Shown here piece by piece: positions 8,596-56,268 of a DNA stretch of 64,000 nucleotides. Every line of letters starts with the position of its first letter. Positions within the stretch are counted from its first letter, which is position 1. Below the pieces are notes generated by a model. The model made no database searches. It was not told the origin of the DNA and saw only the letters and a list, made by a program, of their open reading frames with translations. The DNA comes from Saccharopolyspora sp. NFXS83 (lineage in GTDB: Bacteria > Actinomycetota > Actinomycetes > Mycobacteriales > Pseudonocardiaceae): NCBI RefSeq assembly GCF_026241095.1, contig NZ_JAPFGB010000031.1:1-64000 (forward strand), read 5' to 3'. Both the position numbers and the translations under genes were made by a program.

Positions 8596-9540
8596 TCAGG
8601 AGAGCATCATCGGCAGCGAGAAGATCAGCAGGCAGAGCACGAACCACGCCACCAAGAGACCCACGACCAGGCCGACGTTCGGCGTCGACTGCGGGACCGG
8701 GCCGATCGCGCCGGCACCGAAGGCCACCATCGGGGACCGGTAGTAGGCCTCGACCTGCTGGCCCGCGTTCACCGGGATCACCGCGGTGGCCGAGCCGAAC
8801 TTCCACAGGTAGTTGACGTGCACCTCGATCTGGTGCTGTCCCGGCGGCAGGTCGATCACCGTGCGGCCCCAGACCGCGGGCGGACCCGGCTGGCCGTTGA
8901 TCGTCACGCCCGGCTTGAACAACGCCAGCATGAACGCCATCGGCGTGTACGAGGAGTCCAGCACCACCCGTCCCATCCCGGCGGGCGGCGGGCCGAGCGG
9001 CTGCTGCTGCGGCATGCCGGGAGCCTGCTGCGGCGGACCGGGCTGCGGGTACCCCTGCGGCATCGGCTGGCCGGGCTGCGCGGGATGTCCGGGCTGCGGG
9101 TACGGCTGCTGCGGCATCGGACCGGATCCGGGGTACGGCTGCTGCGGCATGGGACCGGAACCGGGGTACGGCTGCTGCGGCATGGGACCGGAACCCGGGT
9201 AGGGCTGCTGCATCGGGCCCGATCCCGCGTACGGCTGCGGCATCGGACCGGAACCCGGATACGGCTGCGGCATCGGACCGGAACCCGGATACGGCTGCGG
9301 CATCGGGCCGGAACCCGGATACGGCTGCTGGGCAACGGGTTCCGGGGCCGGGTAGCTCGGCTGCGGCAGTCCCGATCCCTGGTAGGGCTGCGGCGGTGGC
9401 GCCGAGTACGGCTGCGGGAACGGGCCGGAGGCGGGGTTCTGCTGCGCACCGGCCTGCGCCCCGGACCAATCGGGAGGCGACACCGGTTGCCCGGCCTGGG
9501 GGTGCGGCTGACCCGGTTGCGGGCCGTATGGCTGAGACAT
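8596..9540 (-). CDS. Pro/Gln-rich repeat protein with C-terminal membrane helix
   Basis: 314 residues. The first two-thirds are low-complexity, built from about eight PYPGSGPMPQ-like units within a Pro/Gln/Tyr-rich region. A conserved globular part of about 110 residues follows (from MGRVVLDSSYTPM; contains DLPPGQHQIEVHVNY), and the protein ends in one hydrophobic segment (LVVGLLVAWFVLCLLIFSL). The start is supported by AGGAGGCCACC before the ATG. The repeats should be cytoplasmic or extracellular and disordered. Similar Pro-rich tails occur in actinobacterial membrane proteins of unknown role. It is convergent with the symporter gene. Confidence 0.8.
   Translation of the reverse strand: MSQPYGPQPGQPHPQAGQPVSPPDWSGAQAGAQQNPASGPFPQPYSAPPPQPYQGSGLPQPSYPAPEPVAQQPYPGSGPMPQPYPGSGPMPQPYPGSGPMPQPYAGSGPMQQPYPGSGPMPQQPYPGSGPMPQQPYPGSGPMPQQPYPQPGHPAQPGQPMPQGYPQPGPPQQAPGMPQQQPLGPPPAGMGRVVLDSSYTPMAFMLALFKPGVTINGQPGPPAVWGRTVIDLPPGQHQIEVHVNYLWKFGSATAVIPVNAGQQVEAYYRSPMVAFGAGAIGPVPQSTPNVGLVVGLLVAWFVLCLLIFSLPMMLS
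9087..9345 (-). repeat. Tandem coding repeats, about 30-33 bp units
   Basis: Near-identical copies of CGGGTACGGCTGC(TGCGG)CATCGG-type units repeat about eight times inside the Pro-rich gene, encoding PYPGSGPMPQ or PYPGSGPMPQQ. The last three upstream copies are almost identical in DNA, which suggests recent slippage or unequal exchange. Confidence 0.75.
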
Positions 9541-19328: not shown

Positions 19329-19554
19329 GGGCTGTGCGTCCTCCTCGACGTTTCCCGTGCGGAACGGCGTTCCGGCGTTCGGCCGACGAGACGCTAGAGG
19401 ACCGCCGCCGCCGTGACCAGCATTGCCACGGAATCGATGCGGAGCAACCGATTGCCCGCCCGAAACGCCCGGATGATCACCTCGAGATGACGAAGCCATG
19501 CCACGGGAAACGAAGCCACGCCCACCCCGCGACCAAAGACCACGCAGTCACGCG
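19329..19554. other. Intergenic region
   Basis: Contains the upstream region of the sugar porter; no gene seen. The remaining 19555-19780 is occupied by the composite repeat described separately. Confidence 0.4.
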
Positions 19555-19784
19555 GCGAAGTCCGCGAAGGGCAAGCGAAGCAAAGCCTGCCTGGCGGCCG
19601 AAGGCCGTGCCTGTATTCGCGCAGCGAATAGCCCACCTACGCAGGCCGCTCACCGGCGGGTTCTCAGTTGGTCTCTCGCGAGGACAGCTTTTTCCCTCGT
19701 GGCGGAGCCACTCGGGAAAAAGATCCCGCAGCGAGAGACCAACTGAGGTTCCGCTACCCGGACACCCAAGCAGAACGAGATCAG
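19555..19784 (-). repeat. Modular 3' repeat, copy A (with hairpin and palindromic tail)
   Basis: Read on the minus strand it begins CTGATCT at the stop codon of the EspG-like gene, then CTCGTTCTGCTT and GTCCGGGTAGCGGAACCTCAG. A nested hairpin follows: a perfect 17-bp stem (19663-19679 with 19731-19747), an inner 8-bp stem (19689-19696 with 19714-19721) and a 5-bp tip (19699-19703 with 19707-19711). Beyond it is a GC-rich tail (19637-19555) containing a 20-mer palindromic core (19594-19613) shared exactly with the asnB copy. Copies B, C and D lie at 51700-51889, 55314-55489 and 38845-39020. Confidence 0.85.
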
Positions 19785-20584
19785 TCTTCGACAGTCTCGG
19801 TGATGAGTTCGCGAAGGTATTCGGCGAGCCGCCGGTTGTCGCAGGGCGCGACGGTGCTCCACTGCCGCCCGTCGCCGCTGGCGCGCACGGAGTGCAGGTA
19901 GCGCCCGTCCGGCGTGTCGTGGAAGCCGACGACGCGGTCGGAGCGCAGCGGTTTCGCCGAGCGGGTCGGGGTGTGCTCGACGCCGAACTGCCCGCGCATG
20001 CCCATGCCTTCGGCCATCCGGGACAGCATCTCCGCGTCGTCCGGTTCCACGCCGAGCCCGCGGAGTTCGTCGGCGAACGCGCGCATGTCCTGCCCGGCGC
20101 GCGCGCCGGCGTCCATCAGCACGTCGTGCGGCACGCTCACCGGACGTCCCCCGCCGGCCGGGCCGTCGCCGGCGACGGAGACGACGGCCTCGGCCAGCGA
20201 ACTACCCCGCACCGGCGCGAGTTCGACGACATCACCGTCCACGATGGTCACGAGCCCGGCGTTGCCGTTGGCGGACCCGAGCGCCCGGATGGAGCGGTCC
20301 GGCGCCCATATCCGCAGGTCGACGGCGAGCTGCGGCCGGTCCAGCAGCACCAGCAGGTCGGCGAAGTCCTCGTCGAGCCGGTCCTCGGCGGGCTCGGCGA
20401 GCGCACGCGCCCGCAGCTGCGGCCACACCTGCGCGACGATGTCGGCCCGCTCGGTGTGCGTGGCGCCCGGGCTGGGCACGGTGAGCACGATGTGCCTGCG
20501 CTCGGTGAGCCCTTCCGATTCGCACGCCACGTCGAACTCCACCGCCGACAGCACGATGGGTTCGGCGTCTGCTCCAGGACGCAC
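19781..20584 (-). CDS. EspG-like ESX secretion-associated protein
   Basis: 267 residues matching the EspG family of cytoplasmic chaperones that bind PPE proteins for type VII secretion. The family opening is clear: LSAVEFDVACESEGL then HIVLTVPSPGATHTERA. It starts with GTG two nucleotides after the PPE-like gene's stop, so the two are co-translated, and the adjacent PPE-like protein is the natural client. EspG members are diverse, so client specificity is inferred from position. The modular 3' repeat begins at its stop codon. Confidence 0.85.
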   Translation of the reverse strand: MRPGADAEPIVLSAVEFDVACESEGLTERRHIVLTVPSPGATHTERADIVAQVWPQLRARALAEPAEDRLDEDFADLLVLLDRPQLAVDLRIWAPDRSIRALGSANGNAGLVTIVDGDVVELAPVRGSSLAEAVVSVAGDGPAGGGRPVSVPHDVLMDAGARAGQDMRAFADELRGLGVEPDDAEMLSRMAEGMGMRGQFGVEHTPTRSAKPLRSDRVVGFHDTPDGRYLHSVRASGDGRQWSTVAPCDNRRLAEYLRELITETVED

Positions 20585-26805: not shown

Positions 26806-27057
26806 TCACACGGAACCCGTACCGCGCACCGCCGAGAGAAAGTCCGCCCACCGCCGAGCGGAAACGACGAGCACCCCGGTCTCCGGCGACTTGGAGTCGC
26901 GAACCCCGACGAAGCCCCCACCAGGAGCCACCTCGACGCAGTTGGCACTGCTGTTGCTATAGCTGGACTTTTGCCAGTTCAACGCCACCTCTACACAGTT
27001 GGCAGTGGTTGCGCTGCGGCTGGACTTTCGCCAGACGACGGCGGGCTGTTCGGTCAT
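26806..27057 (-). CDS. DUF397 protein, two motif copies
   Basis: 83 residues: two consecutive WRKSS-type motifs (WRKSSRSATTANCVEVA and WQKSSYSNSSANCVEVA) and the usual DUF397 tail (GVRDSKSPETGVLVVSARRW). ATG overlaps the stop of the upstream DUF397 gene by 4 nt. DUF397 proteins are encoded next to DUF5753 XRE regulators across actinobacteria and are thought to work with them; the mechanism is not settled. Confidence 0.88.
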   Translation of the reverse strand: MTEQPAVVWRKSSRSATTANCVEVALNWQKSSYSNSSANCVEVAPGGGFVGVRDSKSPETGVLVVSARRWADFLSAVRGTGSV

Positions 27058-27359
27058 CCCTCTTCCCTGCTGACGAAGGCGACGAAGTCCAGCCATCGCC
27101 GAGCAGGAACGACCAGCACGCCGTCATCCGGCGACTTGGAGTCGCGAACACCGACGGAGTCACGCTCGTGAGCCACCTCAACACAGTTCGCGGCGCTGAT
27201 ACTCCTGCTGGACTTGCGCCAGCGCAGAGGGATCTCGACGCAGTTGGCGGTGCTGTTGCTGTAGCTGGACTTCTTCCAGTTGAACGCCACTTCAACGCAG
27301 TTGGCGCTACTCGCGCTATGGCCGGACTTGCGCCAGCGGACCGCTGGGCGGTCGCTCAC
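27054..27359 (-). CDS. DUF397 protein, three motif copies
   Basis: 101 residues with three motifs in a row (WRKSGHSASSANCVEVA, WKKSSYSNSTANCVEIP, WRKSSRSISAANCVEVA), then GVRDSKSPDDGVLVVPARRW. GTG start overlapping the single-motif gene's TGA (GTGA). The triple arrangement is longer than the usual 60-80 residues and must come from internal duplication of the WRKSS unit. Confidence 0.88.
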   Translation of the reverse strand: MSDRPAVRWRKSGHSASSANCVEVAFNWKKSSYSNSTANCVEIPLRWRKSSRSISAANCVEVAHERDSVGVRDSKSPDDGVLVVPARRWLDFVAFVSREEG

Positions 27360-27553
27360 GAGTCTTCGCCGCCGACGAACCCGACGAAGTCCAACCACCG
27401 CCGAGCCGAGAAGATCAGCACACCGTCGTCGGACGACTTGGAGTCGCGAACACCGACGGAGTCGTGATCAATGGCAACTTCGACGCAGTTGGCGGTGTCC
27501 GCGCTGCGAGACGACTTGCGCCACTGCGACTCGCTGAACTGAAAGTCGTTCAT
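27356..27553 (-). CDS. DUF397 protein, one motif copy
   Basis: 65 residues, the standard family length: one WRKSSRSADTANCVEVA motif and GVRDSKSSDDGVLIFSARRW. ATG overlaps the XRE gene's stop by 4 nt. This is the direct partner position for the regulator; the two downstream DUF397 genes appear to be expanded copies. Confidence 0.9.
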   Translation of the reverse strand: MNDFQFSESQWRKSSRSADTANCVEVAIDHDSVGVRDSKSSDDGVLIFSARRWLDFVGFVGGEDS

Positions 27554-51280: not shown

Positions 51281-51699
51281 CACGGATCTCGTCGAAGCGA
51301 AGGGGCGGGTCAGGTGTGCCAGCCGAAGGCTGAACGACCGTCCCGGGCCGGTGCTGCTTGGTCCAGGTGCGGTACCGATGGCGTGAACGGCCGGGACCGT
51401 CCAGCACGCGCGAAGCACCCGGCCGGGCCGACCACCAGGTCCGGCCCACCGCCCGGCCCGCACGGAGCAAGAACTCCGGAAAGCGGGATCAACGAGCATC
51501 CGTGGGACCGGCCAGGCGACCGGAACGCATCCGGACGGACCTCACGCGGCCATCGGAGCCAGGGTACGCCACGCCTCCGACCACCGGAAATCACCCCGGC
51601 CCGAAGCGCGTACCTGGAGTTGACCCCGCATCGCGCCCGCTCTAGGACCTGTCTTTGATCTTGCCCGGCCCAGGTGGGCCAGCGCCCCCTGAGCCTTGT
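51281..51699. other. Intergenic region upstream of DUF177-rpmF-rnc
   Basis: About 420 bp without a gene, followed by copy B of the modular repeat. It should hold the operon promoter. GGACCTGTCTTTGATC near 51645-51660 recalls ends of some actinobacterial IS elements, but no transposase or partner end is present. Confidence 0.35.
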
Positions 51700-51889
51700 C
51701 AGCGGCGGAGCCGCTGCGCAGTGACCGGGCTTGAGCAAGTCGACCGACCGGCGGGTTCTCAGCGGCTTCCTCGCGAGGACGGCCATTTCGCCGTGCACGC
51801 GTGCAGGAGAAATGGATCCCGCAGCGAGGAAACCGCTGAGGTTCCGCTACACGCAGGCCGCGCCGAGAGGACGCCTCGGGAGATCAGTT
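51700..51889 (-). repeat. Modular 3' repeat, copy B
   Basis: On the minus strand CTGATCT begins at the sepIVA stop codon, then GTAGCGGAACCTCAG. The 17-nt arms are 51759-51775 and 51825-51841 (16 of 17 paired), the inner stem is CCATTTC/GAAATGG (51784-51790 with 51810-51816), and the tip is the palindrome TGCACGCGTGCA. Beyond is a small hairpin CAGCGGC-gga-GCCGCTG (51700-51716), also found in copy C. Confidence 0.85.
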
Positions 51890-52621
51890 CTCCTCGTAGA
51901 CGTTCGCCCCGGCGCGCGAGTCCTCGTAGTCGAACGGCACGCCGACCGGGCTGCGCAGCTGCTGGCGCCCCTTGCCGACGGTGCGCAGCGTGCGGCTGAG
52001 CAGGTCCTCGAAGTCCGCCAGCCGCGAGTCCACGTAGGCGTCGCACTCGGTGCGCAGCCGTTCCGCGTCCTCGTTGGCGGCCTCGACGATGCGCCGCGAC
52101 TCGCTGTGCGCCGCCTGCGCGACCTCGGTGTCGGCGACCAGGCGGGCCTGCTCGGACCGGCCCTCGTGCACCGACTGCTCGTAGGCCGCCCGGCCCGCCT
52201 GCACCATGCGGTCCGCCTCGGACTGGGCGCGGCCCACGTAGTCCTCGTACTCGCGGCGACCGGCGGTCACCGACTCCTCCGCGCGAGCGCGAGCGTCGGC
52301 GATGAGCTGGTCGGCCTGTTCCTGGGCGTCGGCGATCAGCTGCTCGGCCTCGGCGCGCGCCGAGGAGACGGTGCGGTCCGCCTCCGACCGGGCGTCCCCT
52401 ATGGCCTTGCCGGACTGCGCCTCCGCCTTGGACACCACGTCATCGCGGTGGTCGAGCACGTCCTGGGCGTCGTCGAGCTCCTGCGGGATCGCGTCCCGCA
52501 CGTCGTCGAGCAGCTCCAGCACATCGCCACGGGGAACGACGCAACCCGAGGTCATCGGTACCCCGCGCGCCTCCTCCACGATCGTGACGAGCTCGTCCAG
52601 CGCCTCGAAAACCCGGTACAC
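51884..52621 (-). CDS. sepIVA: SepIVA-like DivIVA-domain septation protein
   Basis: 245 residues. VYRVFEALDELVTIVEEARG and PRGDVLELLDDVRDAIPQEL at the start are shared with mycobacterial SepIVA (Rv2927c); a continuous coiled coil of Glu/Ala/Arg heptads runs from about 60 to 220. The GTG start has AGGGAG 6 nt upstream and gives the mycobacterial length; an ATG 42 nt further up adds MLAAPDGYDGREIE without homology. SepIVA is needed for septation and early envelope assembly in mycobacteria. Its place beyond DUF177 is also conserved. Confidence 0.88.
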   Translation of the reverse strand: MYRVFEALDELVTIVEEARGVPMTSGCVVPRGDVLELLDDVRDAIPQELDDAQDVLDHRDDVVSKAEAQSGKAIGDARSEADRTVSSARAEAEQLIADAQEQADQLIADARARAEESVTAGRREYEDYVGRAQSEADRMVQAGRAAYEQSVHEGRSEQARLVADTEVAQAAHSESRRIVEAANEDAERLRTECDAYVDSRLADFEDLLSRTLRTVGKGRQQLRSPVGVPFDYEDSRAGANVYEEN

Positions 52622-52967
52622 CTCGATCTCCCTGCCGTCGTAGCCGTCCGGAGCGGCAAGCATGACACCAGACTCCGGCCCCGGGGATCACGGGTCGGCC
52701 GATCACCAGTGTGCCGCCGCAGGCCACGCGAGGTGTGGACCCTCGCCGCGCGTGTCCCGATTCCCGCCGAGCGCCACGAACGCGCCGAGCCCCGCTCCCG
52801 CGACGACGAACGGGTCGCCCGCCCCGCGTGGGGCGGGCGACCGGACGATCTTGGCGCCGACGCGATCTCCTTCTCGAGCGAGCGGAGCCCGCGGAGTTCG
52901 ATCCCGCGGCGCGACGGCCGCCGAACTCCCGCCCATCCGCTGCGCGGAGCAGGCCGGGGAGAACCGA
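52622..52967. other. Intergenic region, no gene seen
   Basis: 346 bp between sepIVA and the RNase gene. A near-repeat of GCCCCGCGTGGGGC (about 52821-52834, self-complementary) may form a hairpin. No barstar-like inhibitor frame is present. Confidence 0.35.
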
Positions 52968-55313: not shown

Positions 55314-55489
55314 CAGCGGCGAAGCCGCTGAGCGGTGACCACCTGGGACACCGGACCACCGGCGGTTTCTCAGCGGCCTTCTCGCGAGGACGGCCGTTCC
55401 GCCGAGCGAAGGAGCTGCTCGGGAAAGGGGTCCCGCAGTGAGAAGGCCGCTGAGGTTCCGCTACCCGGACACCCGCGCGAAAAGATCAG
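55314..55489 (-). repeat. Modular 3' repeat, copy C
   Basis: On the minus strand CTGATCT (55489-55483) lies 21 nt after the L,D-transpeptidase stop, then GGGTGTCCGGGTAGCGGAAC and CTCAG. The 17-nt arms are 55369-55385 and 55438-55454 (16 of 17 paired); the inner stem near CCGTTCC/GGAAAGG has one mismatch. The small hairpin CAGCGGC-gaa-GCCGCTG is at 55314-55330, as in copy B. Confidence 0.85.
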
Positions 55490-55510: not shown

Positions 55511-55966
55511 TCACTGGACGACTTGGACCTCGTCGCCGGGGTTGAGCGTGTCGAAGAACTTCTTCGACGCGGTGGTCGACAGGTGGATGCAGCCGTTGGA
55601 CTCCTGCTCGAGGCTGCCCTCGTGGAAGGCGACCCCGGTCTTGGTGAAGAACACCGAGTTCGGCATGGGCGCGTTGTTGAACTCGGTGCTGCGGTGGTCC
55701 GCGTCCTTCCAGAGGACCTTGTGCGTCCCGACCGGTGTTTCCGAGCCCACCTTGCCGGACGTCAGCGGCACCGGGCCGTAGAAGCCCGTGCCGTTCTCCT
55801 GCAACCAGGCCTGCTTGGACGACAGGTCCACGCAGGCCTTCGCGGTCGCCTGGCACGGCGTCACGTCGCCGGCGTCCGCGTAGGCAGCGGCGCCGGTGAG
55901 CGCACCCCCGGCGACCAGGGCGGCCACGGTGGCCACTCTGCCGAGACGCTTGTTCACGTTGCGCAT
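55511..55966 (-). CDS. Secreted L,D-transpeptidase (YkuD family)
   Basis: 151 residues. Signal peptide (RLGRVATVAALVAGGALTG, cleavage near AYADA), then a single YkuD domain: VDLSSKQAWLQENGT, SGKVGSETPVGTHKVLWKD, VFFTKTGVAFHEG and the catalytic SNGCIHLS (Cys about 127). It makes 3-3 cross-links in peptidoglycan or attaches proteins. ATG has AGGAAGG upstream; an in-frame GTG three codons earlier is possible. No LysM or Ig-like domain, so it is a short form. Confidence 0.9.
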   Translation of the reverse strand: MRNVNKRLGRVATVAALVAGGALTGAAAYADAGDVTPCQATAKACVDLSSKQAWLQENGTGFYGPVPLTSGKVGSETPVGTHKVLWKDADHRSTEFNNAPMPNSVFFTKTGVAFHEGSLEQESNGCIHLSTTASKKFFDTLNPGDEVQVVQ

Positions 55967-56268
55967 GGGCTTCACGTCCTTCCTGCCTTCGCAGTTCACT
56001 CCACAGTGCCACAGGCACAAGGGTTCGAACACACTGCGTTCCCGGAATTGCGCTCAACCCCAACACTTTCATCCCATCGGACCCACAAACGCTGGTCATC
56101 CTGGGGTTTCCGATCACCCGAGATCGAATTCACCTTGCCCCGCAACGCATTTCCGCCCGCGGGCACGTGATCGCGCACGTTCCGGCGCCGACCCGAGGCG
56201 GTGTTCGAGCAGGGCGGCGGGAGAGGCCCGCCACGACGACCGCGCGGTGACCTCGCCGAGGGCCGGGT
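55967..56268. other. Intergenic region, no gene seen
   Basis: 302 bp with locally lower GC (56000-56160), probably the promoter of the L,D-transpeptidase gene. No gene, clear hairpin or repeat was found. Confidence 0.35.

What the first reader, a model, noticed from the sequence alone, without database searches (positions are those of the whole stretch)
19651..19784. Covarying nested hairpin in a modular repeat (copy A, compared with B and C)
Three dispersed copies (here, 51747-51889, 55358-55489) keep fixed words (CTGATCT, GTAGCGGAACCTCAG, CTCGC, ATCCCGC) but differ inside the stem: arm cores are TTGGTCT, CGGCTTC and CGGCCTT, and each opposite arm changes to match. The inner stem also changes in step: TTTTTCCC/GGGAAAAA here, CCATTTC/GAAATGG in B. 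Compensatory change across copies means selection on base pairing, in RNA or cruciform DNA, rather than on sequence. It could be a processed 3' UTR element, a terminator family, or a non-autonomous mobile palindrome.
Basis: seen in the sequence. Interest (0 to 1): 0.8.

Follow-up and report, generated by a model that had tools for sequence, protein, structure and literature searches.

The report
Shuffled palindromic repeat after stop codons
Copies of a roughly 100-base hairpin repeat sit just after the stop codons of many genes in this bacterium and its relatives, and although the two arms of the hairpin are rewritten between species at the same spot, they mostly still match each other, which makes it a good natural system for studying how bacterial repeat DNA spreads and stays folded.

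Summary
Copies A, B and C belong to a family with at least 149 covariance-model matches in this genome (a floor); its 15-nt word occurs in 6 of 6 genomes of the genus and 77 of 390 of the family. Outer and inner stems covary strongly. In 81 of 100 own-genome copies and 84 of 105 copies from other genomes the element follows a gene in the gene's orientation, median 32 and 39 nt after the stop. At 9 orthologous addresses (15 genome pairs) the 8-bp arm cores differ at 45.8% of positions, against 8.2% in upstream DNA and 2.9% in the fixed words; ortholog arms are no more alike than random copies, and 5' module and tail behave likewise. So whole units appear to be re-drawn at fixed addresses. No RAYT or reverse transcriptase tracks copy number. 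Arm mismatches show no preference for RNA wobble on the mRNA strand, which weakens the simple 3'-UTR-RNA reading. Best filing: a REP/BIME-like family, a new variant, for which I found no description in the papers I could search; a gene-end hairpin role is plausible but untested.

The parts
19652..19757 (-). copy A, core element (covariance-model span)
   Evidence: 125.9 bits, E 3e-27; fold
19743..19757 (-). fixed word GTAGCGGAACCTCAG of copy A
19731..19747 (-). copy A outer stem, 5' arm on the minus strand (17 bp, perfect)
19663..19679 (-). copy A outer stem, 3' arm on the minus strand
19714..19722 (-). copy A inner stem, 5' arm on the minus strand (CTTTTTCCC)
19688..19696 (-). copy A inner stem, 3' arm on the minus strand (GGGAAAAAG)
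19758..19780 (-). copy A 5' module between stop codon and hairpin
   Evidence: homology to many other copies ends at 19778-19779
19781..19783 (-). TGA stop codon of the upstream gene (part of the word CTGATCT)
19491..19651 (-). copy A tail: small-hairpin array, shared in part with other copies
19784..20584 (-). gene upstream of copy A: EspG family (PF14011)
51747..51850 (-). copy B, core element
   Evidence: 101.0 bits; fold
51884..51886 (-). TGA stop codon upstream of copy B, 33 nt from the element
51700..51716 (-). copy B second small hairpin in the tail
   Evidence: read by eye
51887..52663 (-). gene upstream of copy B: best Pfam match V-ATPase_G_2 (30.9 bits), with a DivIVA match below cut-off (19.9 of 28 bits)
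55358..55464 (-). copy C, core element
   Evidence: 101.3 bits; fold
55511..55513 (-). TGA stop codon upstream of copy C, 46 nt from the element
55314..55330 (-). copy C second small hairpin in the tail
   Evidence: read by eye
55514..56032 (-). gene upstream of copy C: L,D-transpeptidase (YkuD, PF03734)

Best explanation
A REP/BIME-like family of composite extragenic palindromic repeats of Saccharopolyspora and relatives. Each unit is a short 5' module, one long hairpin of about 100 bases with fixed words at its foot and inner loop and freely varying but mostly matched arms, and in most own-genome copies a tail of one or more small hairpins. Units sit just behind stop codons, mostly in the orientation of the gene. 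Shown: the family, its structure, its address, and that at shared addresses the units differ between species about as much as random copies do. Inferred: units are copied between addresses, by ectopic gene conversion and/or by insertion with an unidentified enzyme; matched arms are inherited together, and new arm types arise by one-arm mutation followed by restoration of pairing, through selection or copying of one arm onto the other. Also inferred: the hairpin is kept because it can serve as the gene's 3'-end hairpin (termination or decay barrier), as suggested by site C, where relatives without the element have an ordinary strong GC-rich hairpin.
For: At least 149 matches at E<=0.01 in this genome, 6 of them partial; a floor, because only 150 candidates were scored. 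The 15-nt word with up to 1 mismatch 140 times against 1 for the reversed control. Address: sense after a gene in 81 of 100 own and 84 of 105 other-genome copies, with 70 of 81 and 61 of 84 at 15-50 nt from the stop; on contig C34 (347 kb) 12 element-bearing junctions, 0 of 57 divergent ones. Pairing: 88 unique own rows, outer stem 95.9% Watson-Crick against 81.0% shuffled (maximum of 200: 82.9%); 67 rows from other genomes 90.8% against 72.1%. Unit replacement: 15 pairs at 9 addresses, arm core 110 of 240 positions different, inner 47 of 762, fixed words 15 of 525, upstream 367 of 4464; arm, 5' module and tail identity of orthologs not above class-matched random pairs, while the flank at -45..-25 is (0.560 against 0.365, 0 of 300 simulations). 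Recombination scars: copies with left and right arms of different types, one copy with inverted interior (L102), one collapsed copy (L011). At site C, G003, G004 and G005 lack the element and fold a GC-rich hairpin of about 14-17 bp there.
Against: No transcript or 3'-end data were available. No T-run follows the main hairpin; terminator-like matches in copy A (2 found, mean 0.4 in shuffles) lie inside its 5' half, and none falls in copies B or C. No gene-conversion tract was followed directly, and no enzyme identified. Frame and inner segments of orthologs are slightly more alike than random copies (fractions of simulations as high 0.067 and 0.043), so some vertical inheritance may persist. 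Tail class (array or second hairpin) agrees in 14 of 15 ortholog pairs, so replacement is not blind to class. Addresses are not always kept: of 14 intact G003 copies that map to G000, 8 are intact there. The hairpin swap was folded at one site only.
Confidence: 0.6

Rival explanations
1. Single-stranded-DNA hairpin, read on the strand complementary to the gene, is the substrate of an unidentified recombinase or transposase. The position after stop codons reflects target choice (for example native terminator hairpins), and pairing is kept because the enzyme needs the hairpin.
For: In other genomes imperfect outer-stem pairs favour wobble on the complementary strand: 101 A.C to 13 G.U on the gene strand over 83 distinct arm pairs; 21 to 5 as clustered events without position 9, p 0.0025. 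The complementary strand folds better by more than 1 kcal/mol in 110 of 115 copies from other genomes (gene strand better in 3) and 67 of 99 own ones (18). The AAC/AAC loop becomes GUU/GUU on that strand. A unit of 314 bp lies directly behind a stop codon in G004 where G003 has two bases between convergent stops. Site C seems, by eye, to split a small native hairpin.
Against: No Y1 transposase match in G000, G003, G004, G005, G350, G357 or G367, all rich in copies, though the copy-rich G353, G363, G368 and G369 have some. No match on phages, viral contigs or plasmids. No consistent strand bias by replichore (24 of 30 leading in G002, a hand count; 30 of 79 in G003, GTAG copies only). No target duplication seen in the alignments I read (the latter cut). 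The own genome shows no clear bias of wobble (14 A.C to 12 G.U events).
Confidence: 0.3
2. A structured 3'-UTR RNA element (terminator, RNase III site or stabiliser) kept by selection on its mRNA-strand fold at each site: the first reader's main reading.
For: Sense orientation and tight stop-to-hairpin distance in two sets of genomes; strong covariation; the inner GGGAU/GUCCU helix has two G.U pairs on the mRNA strand.
Against: No G.U excess over A.C on the mRNA strand in the outer stem nor in the inner stem (G.U 23 to A.C 36 own, 16 to 23 others). Turnover at shared addresses looks whole-unit, so covariation is between family types rather than site by site.
Confidence: 0.25
3. No function: pairing is kept mechanically, since long palindromes copy one arm onto the other during replication or repair, and ectopic gene conversion spreads units; gene ends are where such repeats are tolerated.
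For: G.U and A.C about equal among own-genome outer-stem mismatches; chimeric, inverted and collapsed copies; eroded copies at several orthologous sites.
Against: Strong sense-orientation bias and the same fixed words across genera are hard to get without function or an enzyme.
Confidence: 0.15
4. Classical RAYT-mobilised GTAG REP.
For: GTAG or GTGG at the palindrome foot; extragenic position.
Against: Y1 transposase family not found in G000; most exact copies there read GTGG; unit much longer than 20-40 bp.
Confidence: 0.04

Closest known systems
GTAG/CGTC-tagged REPs and BIMEs (PMC3733652 and RepRanger paper PMC12306157: abstract starts and passages seen)
   Same: High-copy extragenic palindromes close downstream of coding regions; proposed roles in termination and mRNA stability; in E. 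coli many lie near stop codons, and GTAG termini often provide a stop codon to flanking ORFs. Mosaic arrays of BIMEs are recalled.
   Different: Core of about 106 bases, composite units to about 300; GTRG rather than strict GTAG; no RAYT found in this genome. PMC3733652 names Proteobacteria, Cyanobacteria, Chloroflexi and PVC for GTAG repeats and has no 'actinobacter' or 'Saccharo' in its text; PMC12306157 tabulates REP predictions for three Actinomycetota genomes, none of this family. Arms re-drawn at fixed addresses and strong sense orientation are the new traits.
ERIC/IRU, NEMIS/Correia and BOX elements (recalled, not tested)
   Same: About 100-150 bp structured repeats, intergenic, often co-transcribed in 3' regions.
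   Different: No sequence test was made; internal fixed words with matched variable arms and a single stop-proximal orientation are not, to my recollection, their hallmarks.
Integron attC sites (recalled, not tested)
   Same: Lie behind stop codons in fixed orientation; structure conserved over sequence; complementary strand folds.
   Different: Recalled R-box consensus not recognised by eye in the fixed words; copies are dispersed over the genome, not in one cassette array.
Intrinsic terminators of high-GC actinobacteria (recalled as a class)
   Same: Strong GC-rich hairpin soon after the stop codon; at site C three relatives without the element have such a hairpin.
   Different: No terminal T-run after the main hairpin; it is a repeat family with conserved words.

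Membership tests
REP (GTAG class) | 20-40 bp palindrome (size as given in the abstract of PMC3733652) | tested here: not met
   model of 106 positions; 143 of 149 own-genome matches span all of it
REP (GTAG class) | GTAG tetranucleotide at one end | tested here: inconclusive
   40 exact GTAG words of 125 exact GTRG words in G000, the rest GTGG; the last G is paired in the consensus fold
REP (GTAG class) | RAYT (IS200/IS605-like Y1 transposase) in the genome | tested here: not met
   0 matches in G000. Over 30 chosen genomes 11 have one: the three richest in copies (G003, G004, G357) have none, G353, G363, G368 and G369 have some
REP (GTAG class) | extragenic, downstream of genes | tested here: met
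   (1 of 100 own and 16 of 105 other copies overlap a predicted frame of the ad hoc gene finder); 0 of 57 divergent junctions
MITE | terminal inverted repeats and target-site duplication | tested here: inconclusive
   outer inverted words seen by eye in a few copies (window C, L005); no duplication seen in the alignments read
MITE | related autonomous transposon | not tested
   only the Y1 and RT protein families were searched
Intrinsic terminator | hairpin soon after the stop codon | tested here: met
Intrinsic terminator | U-tract directly after the hairpin | tested here: not met
   main stem is followed by AACCCGC or close variants; scans gave no match at the 3' foot of A, B or C
Any Rfam 15 family | covariance model above gathering score | tested here: not met
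   0 matches in the window
Integron attC | recombination by IntI | not testable with these tools
   no IntI search or assay was made

The most novel reading that the evidence does not exclude
The hairpin is a barcode-like recognition element on the strand opposite the mRNA. A host or mobile enzyme reads the fixed foot and inner-loop words, tolerates any matched arm, and keeps replacing the units parked behind stop codons with fresh copies, so that gene ends act as standing addresses for a shuffled repeat that doubles as the gene's transcription-end hairpin. It would be a mobile system without RAYT, with integron-like logic (structure over sequence, behind stop codons, complementary strand) but genome-wide.
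Probability: 0.15. Interest if true: 0.85.

Novelty: new variant of a known kind. Interest (0 to 1): 0.56.

Why it matters
It shows, in natural genomes about 8% diverged in the DNA just upstream, a repeat whose paired arms are rewritten at fixed addresses while flanks and fixed words change little. That separates three things usually confounded: covariation by selection, by mechanical arm copying, and by whole-unit replacement. It also warns that covariation between dispersed copies of a repeat is not by itself proof of selection on each copy. If the units end transcription, many genes of these actinomycetes share one interchangeable 3'-end module.

Tried and rejected
RAYT origin: PF01797 not found in G000. 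Over 30 genomes chosen by me to include copy-rich and copy-free ones, 11 have a match and it does not track copy number: none in G003, G004 and G357 (274, 202, 197 exact words), some in G368 and G369 (162, 167) and in G055 and G023 (0 words). Reverse-transcriptase origin: PF00078 in 11 of 30; one match in G000; none in G003, G004, G350, G357 or G367; some in G353, G368 and G369. Replichore bias: no consistent sign (origin taken at dnaA, terminus taken as opposite; GTAG copies only for G003). Vectors: no match on plasmids, phages or viral contigs. A shared gene upstream of nine copies: it turned out to be an extra repeat module. Printed description: searches. Of the S. erythraea RNA-seq paper PMC3610266 I saw abstract, outline, found passages and two sections; none mentions the repeat. 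Of REP papers PMC3733652 and PMC12306157 and stem-loop survey PMC2267715 I saw abstract starts and passages; none holds the word-start 'Saccharo'. The repeat's word itself was found only in one unrelated paper (listing). Subscription papers, including the S. erythraea genome paper (recalled), were not searchable.

Caveats on counts: anchor-based extraction misses decayed copies (C34: 9 intact by anchors, 12 by model). One search used 113 own and 130 other copies; one search then skipped 13 and 25 (more than 5 arm mismatches, or no neighbouring gene in reach); searches dropped likewise. In one search, 12 of 102 and 38 of 105 aligned rows were dropped as the complement of a better row, and only 61 of the 110 loci had been given. 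G004 copies were chosen from BLAST hits to copy A, so their arms lean to copy A's type in the random pools. The 15 ortholog pairs come from 9 addresses and are not independent. The gene finder was an ad hoc hexamer model; hairpin z-scores used single-base shuffles. Outputs were cut.

Full report
What is there. A covariance model built from 15 own-genome copies finds these three full copies in the window; all three fold far better than shuffles. Each lies behind a TGA stop of a minus-strand gene: EspG family (A), a protein with weak V-ATPase-G and sub-threshold DivIVA matches (B), an L,D-transpeptidase (C), at 23, 33 and 46 nt. The 'fixed word' CTGATCT contains that stop codon in A and B and lies about 20 nt past it in C; it occurs upstream of 5 of 101 copies.

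How many, and where. The own genome has at least 149 model matches, 6 of them partial (only 150 candidates are scored), and 140 words with up to one mismatch against 1 for the reversed control. All 6 genomes of the genus have the exact word, from 30 to 274 times, control 0. In the family 77 of 390 genomes and 17 of 46 genera have it, patchily (some single hits may be chance, since the reversed control also hits singly). No match for the window in Rfam, nor for single copies or the pattern in plasmids, phages or viral contigs.

Address. With an ad hoc gene finder, 81 of 100 own copies and 84 of 105 copies from other genomes follow a gene in the same orientation; 70 of 81 and 61 of 84 lie 15-50 nt after the stop (medians 32 and 39 over all sense cases). 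Of the rest, 17 of 19 own and 16 of 21 others have the next gene converging on them, that is, they lie antisense beyond its 3' end. One own and 16 other copies overlap a predicted frame. On a 347-kb contig 12 junctions carry the element: 4 of 56 convergent, 8 of 191 co-directional, 0 of 57 divergent. There, 26 of 144 gene ends without the element have a strong hairpin (z below -3) in the first 80 nt, against 0 of 62 coding controls, so this is a slot where hairpins are used. At site C, G003, G004 and G005 lack the element and fold a GC-rich hairpin of about 14-17 bp instead.

Structure. In 88 unique own rows the outer stem is 95.9% Watson-Crick against 81.0% in shuffles (maximum of 200: 82.9%) and 15-35% when slid; inner stem 83.4% against 74.9%. 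In 67 rows from other genomes 90.8% against 72.1% (outer) and 67.6% against 53.1% (inner). These alignments were fitted to the model, so per-cent paired leans towards it; the 15-copy MAFFT alignment gives the same answer.

Which strand. Selection on an RNA fold should leave G.U and remove A.C on the transcribed-gene strand. In the own genome clustered events in the 8-bp arm core are 14 A.C to 12 G.U (10 to 9 without position 9). In other genomes they are 39 to 5, or 21 to 5 without position 9 (p 0.0025). In the inner stem A.C also exceeds G.U, 36 to 23 own and 23 to 16 others (not clustered). Position 9 is an A.C-type pair in 53 of 83 distinct arm pairs of other genomes, a wobble on the complementary strand. 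The complementary strand folds better in 110 of 115 and 67 of 99 copies, the gene strand in 3 and 18. Against this, the inner GGGAU/GUCCU helix has its G.U pairs on the gene strand. The strand question is open, but the mRNA-strand reading is not favoured.

Turnover at shared addresses. On a 347-kb contig and its counterparts in G003 and G004, 9 intact G000 copies were found by anchors; 8 could be mapped to G003, and all 8 have an intact copy there. The other way round, of 19 intact G003 copies in 400 kb 14 could be mapped to G000 and 8 of these are intact there. Over 15 genome pairs at 9 addresses the arm cores differ at 110 of 240 positions (45.8%), the inner part at 47 of 762 (6.2%), the fixed words at 15 of 525 (2.9%) and 300 nt of upstream DNA at 367 of 4464 (8.2%). 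Of the 21 distinct copies in these pairs 18 have perfectly matched arm cores; G000 101998, G003 366933 and G004 12316 do not. Mean left-arm difference is 3.67 of 8 for orthologs and 3.63 (sd 0.47) for random cross-genome pairs. With class-matched random pairs, arm, 5' module and first 30 nt of tail of orthologs are no more alike than random; frame and inner part are marginally more alike (0.067, 0.043); the flank at -45..-25 is clearly more alike (0 of 300). Tail class agrees in 14 of 15 pairs. So the unit looks re-drawn as a whole, within its class, while the address stays. Site A shows the same: shared with G003, with other arms.

Gains, losses and scars. In G004 314 bp with a unit lie between a stop codon and the next gene's stop, where G003 has two bases and G000 a short stretch. 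G003 has copies at places where the anchored gap in G000 is 111 or 90 bp. Eroded copies occur at several orthologous places. One copy has its interior inverted (L102), one is collapsed (L011), and some have left and right arms of different types.

What it most likely is. A REP/BIME-like family, larger than classical REPs and without their usual transposase in this genome, spread and re-drawn as units and able to serve as the 3'-end hairpin of genes. That orthologous units are as different as random copies is shown; gene conversion or re-insertion as the cause is inferred; the 3'-end role is inferred from place, orientation and the hairpin swap at site C. I found no printed description in the library searched, which lacks most subscription papers.

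Noticed in passing
G000 contig ends: C13:39-53, C14:60-74, C15:2-16, C19:65-79, C24:13-27, C30:149-163, C32:30-44: Copies of the repeat lie at the very ends of draft contigs, so the repeat probably breaks the assembly.
   Followed up: no
L012, L015, L016, L021, L022, L027, L028, L029, L082: Nine own-genome copies carry a further 5' module in front of the usual one (aligned 55-131 nt to the L012 copy); it looks non-coding.
   Followed up: partly
L102 (copy at 2001-2106): The part inside the outer stem is inverted relative to the flanks, as if by recombination across the inverted arms.
   Followed up: partly
window 51649-51663; also L005 and L118: Outer motif like CAAGATCAAAGACAGG at the far end of some copies, in some with an inverted partner near the stop codon; may be an outer terminal repeat (the search in the window itself is no better than chance, 33 of 100 shuffles).
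   Followed up: partly
window 26840-27526: Clustered direct repeats, among them six copies of 53 nt (D2-D4); they look like a repeated DUF397-type domain (recalled, not tested).
   Followed up: no
window 9108-9445: Overlapping direct repeats with spacings that are multiples of three, mostly 30-33 nt (D1); presumably a repetitive protein stretch (not tested).
   Followed up: no
window 19722-19740, minus strand: Inside copy A's 5' half a short hairpin is followed by TTTTT, a terminator-like match; the T-run varies between copies and is mostly missing in the other genomes' copies seen (cut).
   Followed up: partly
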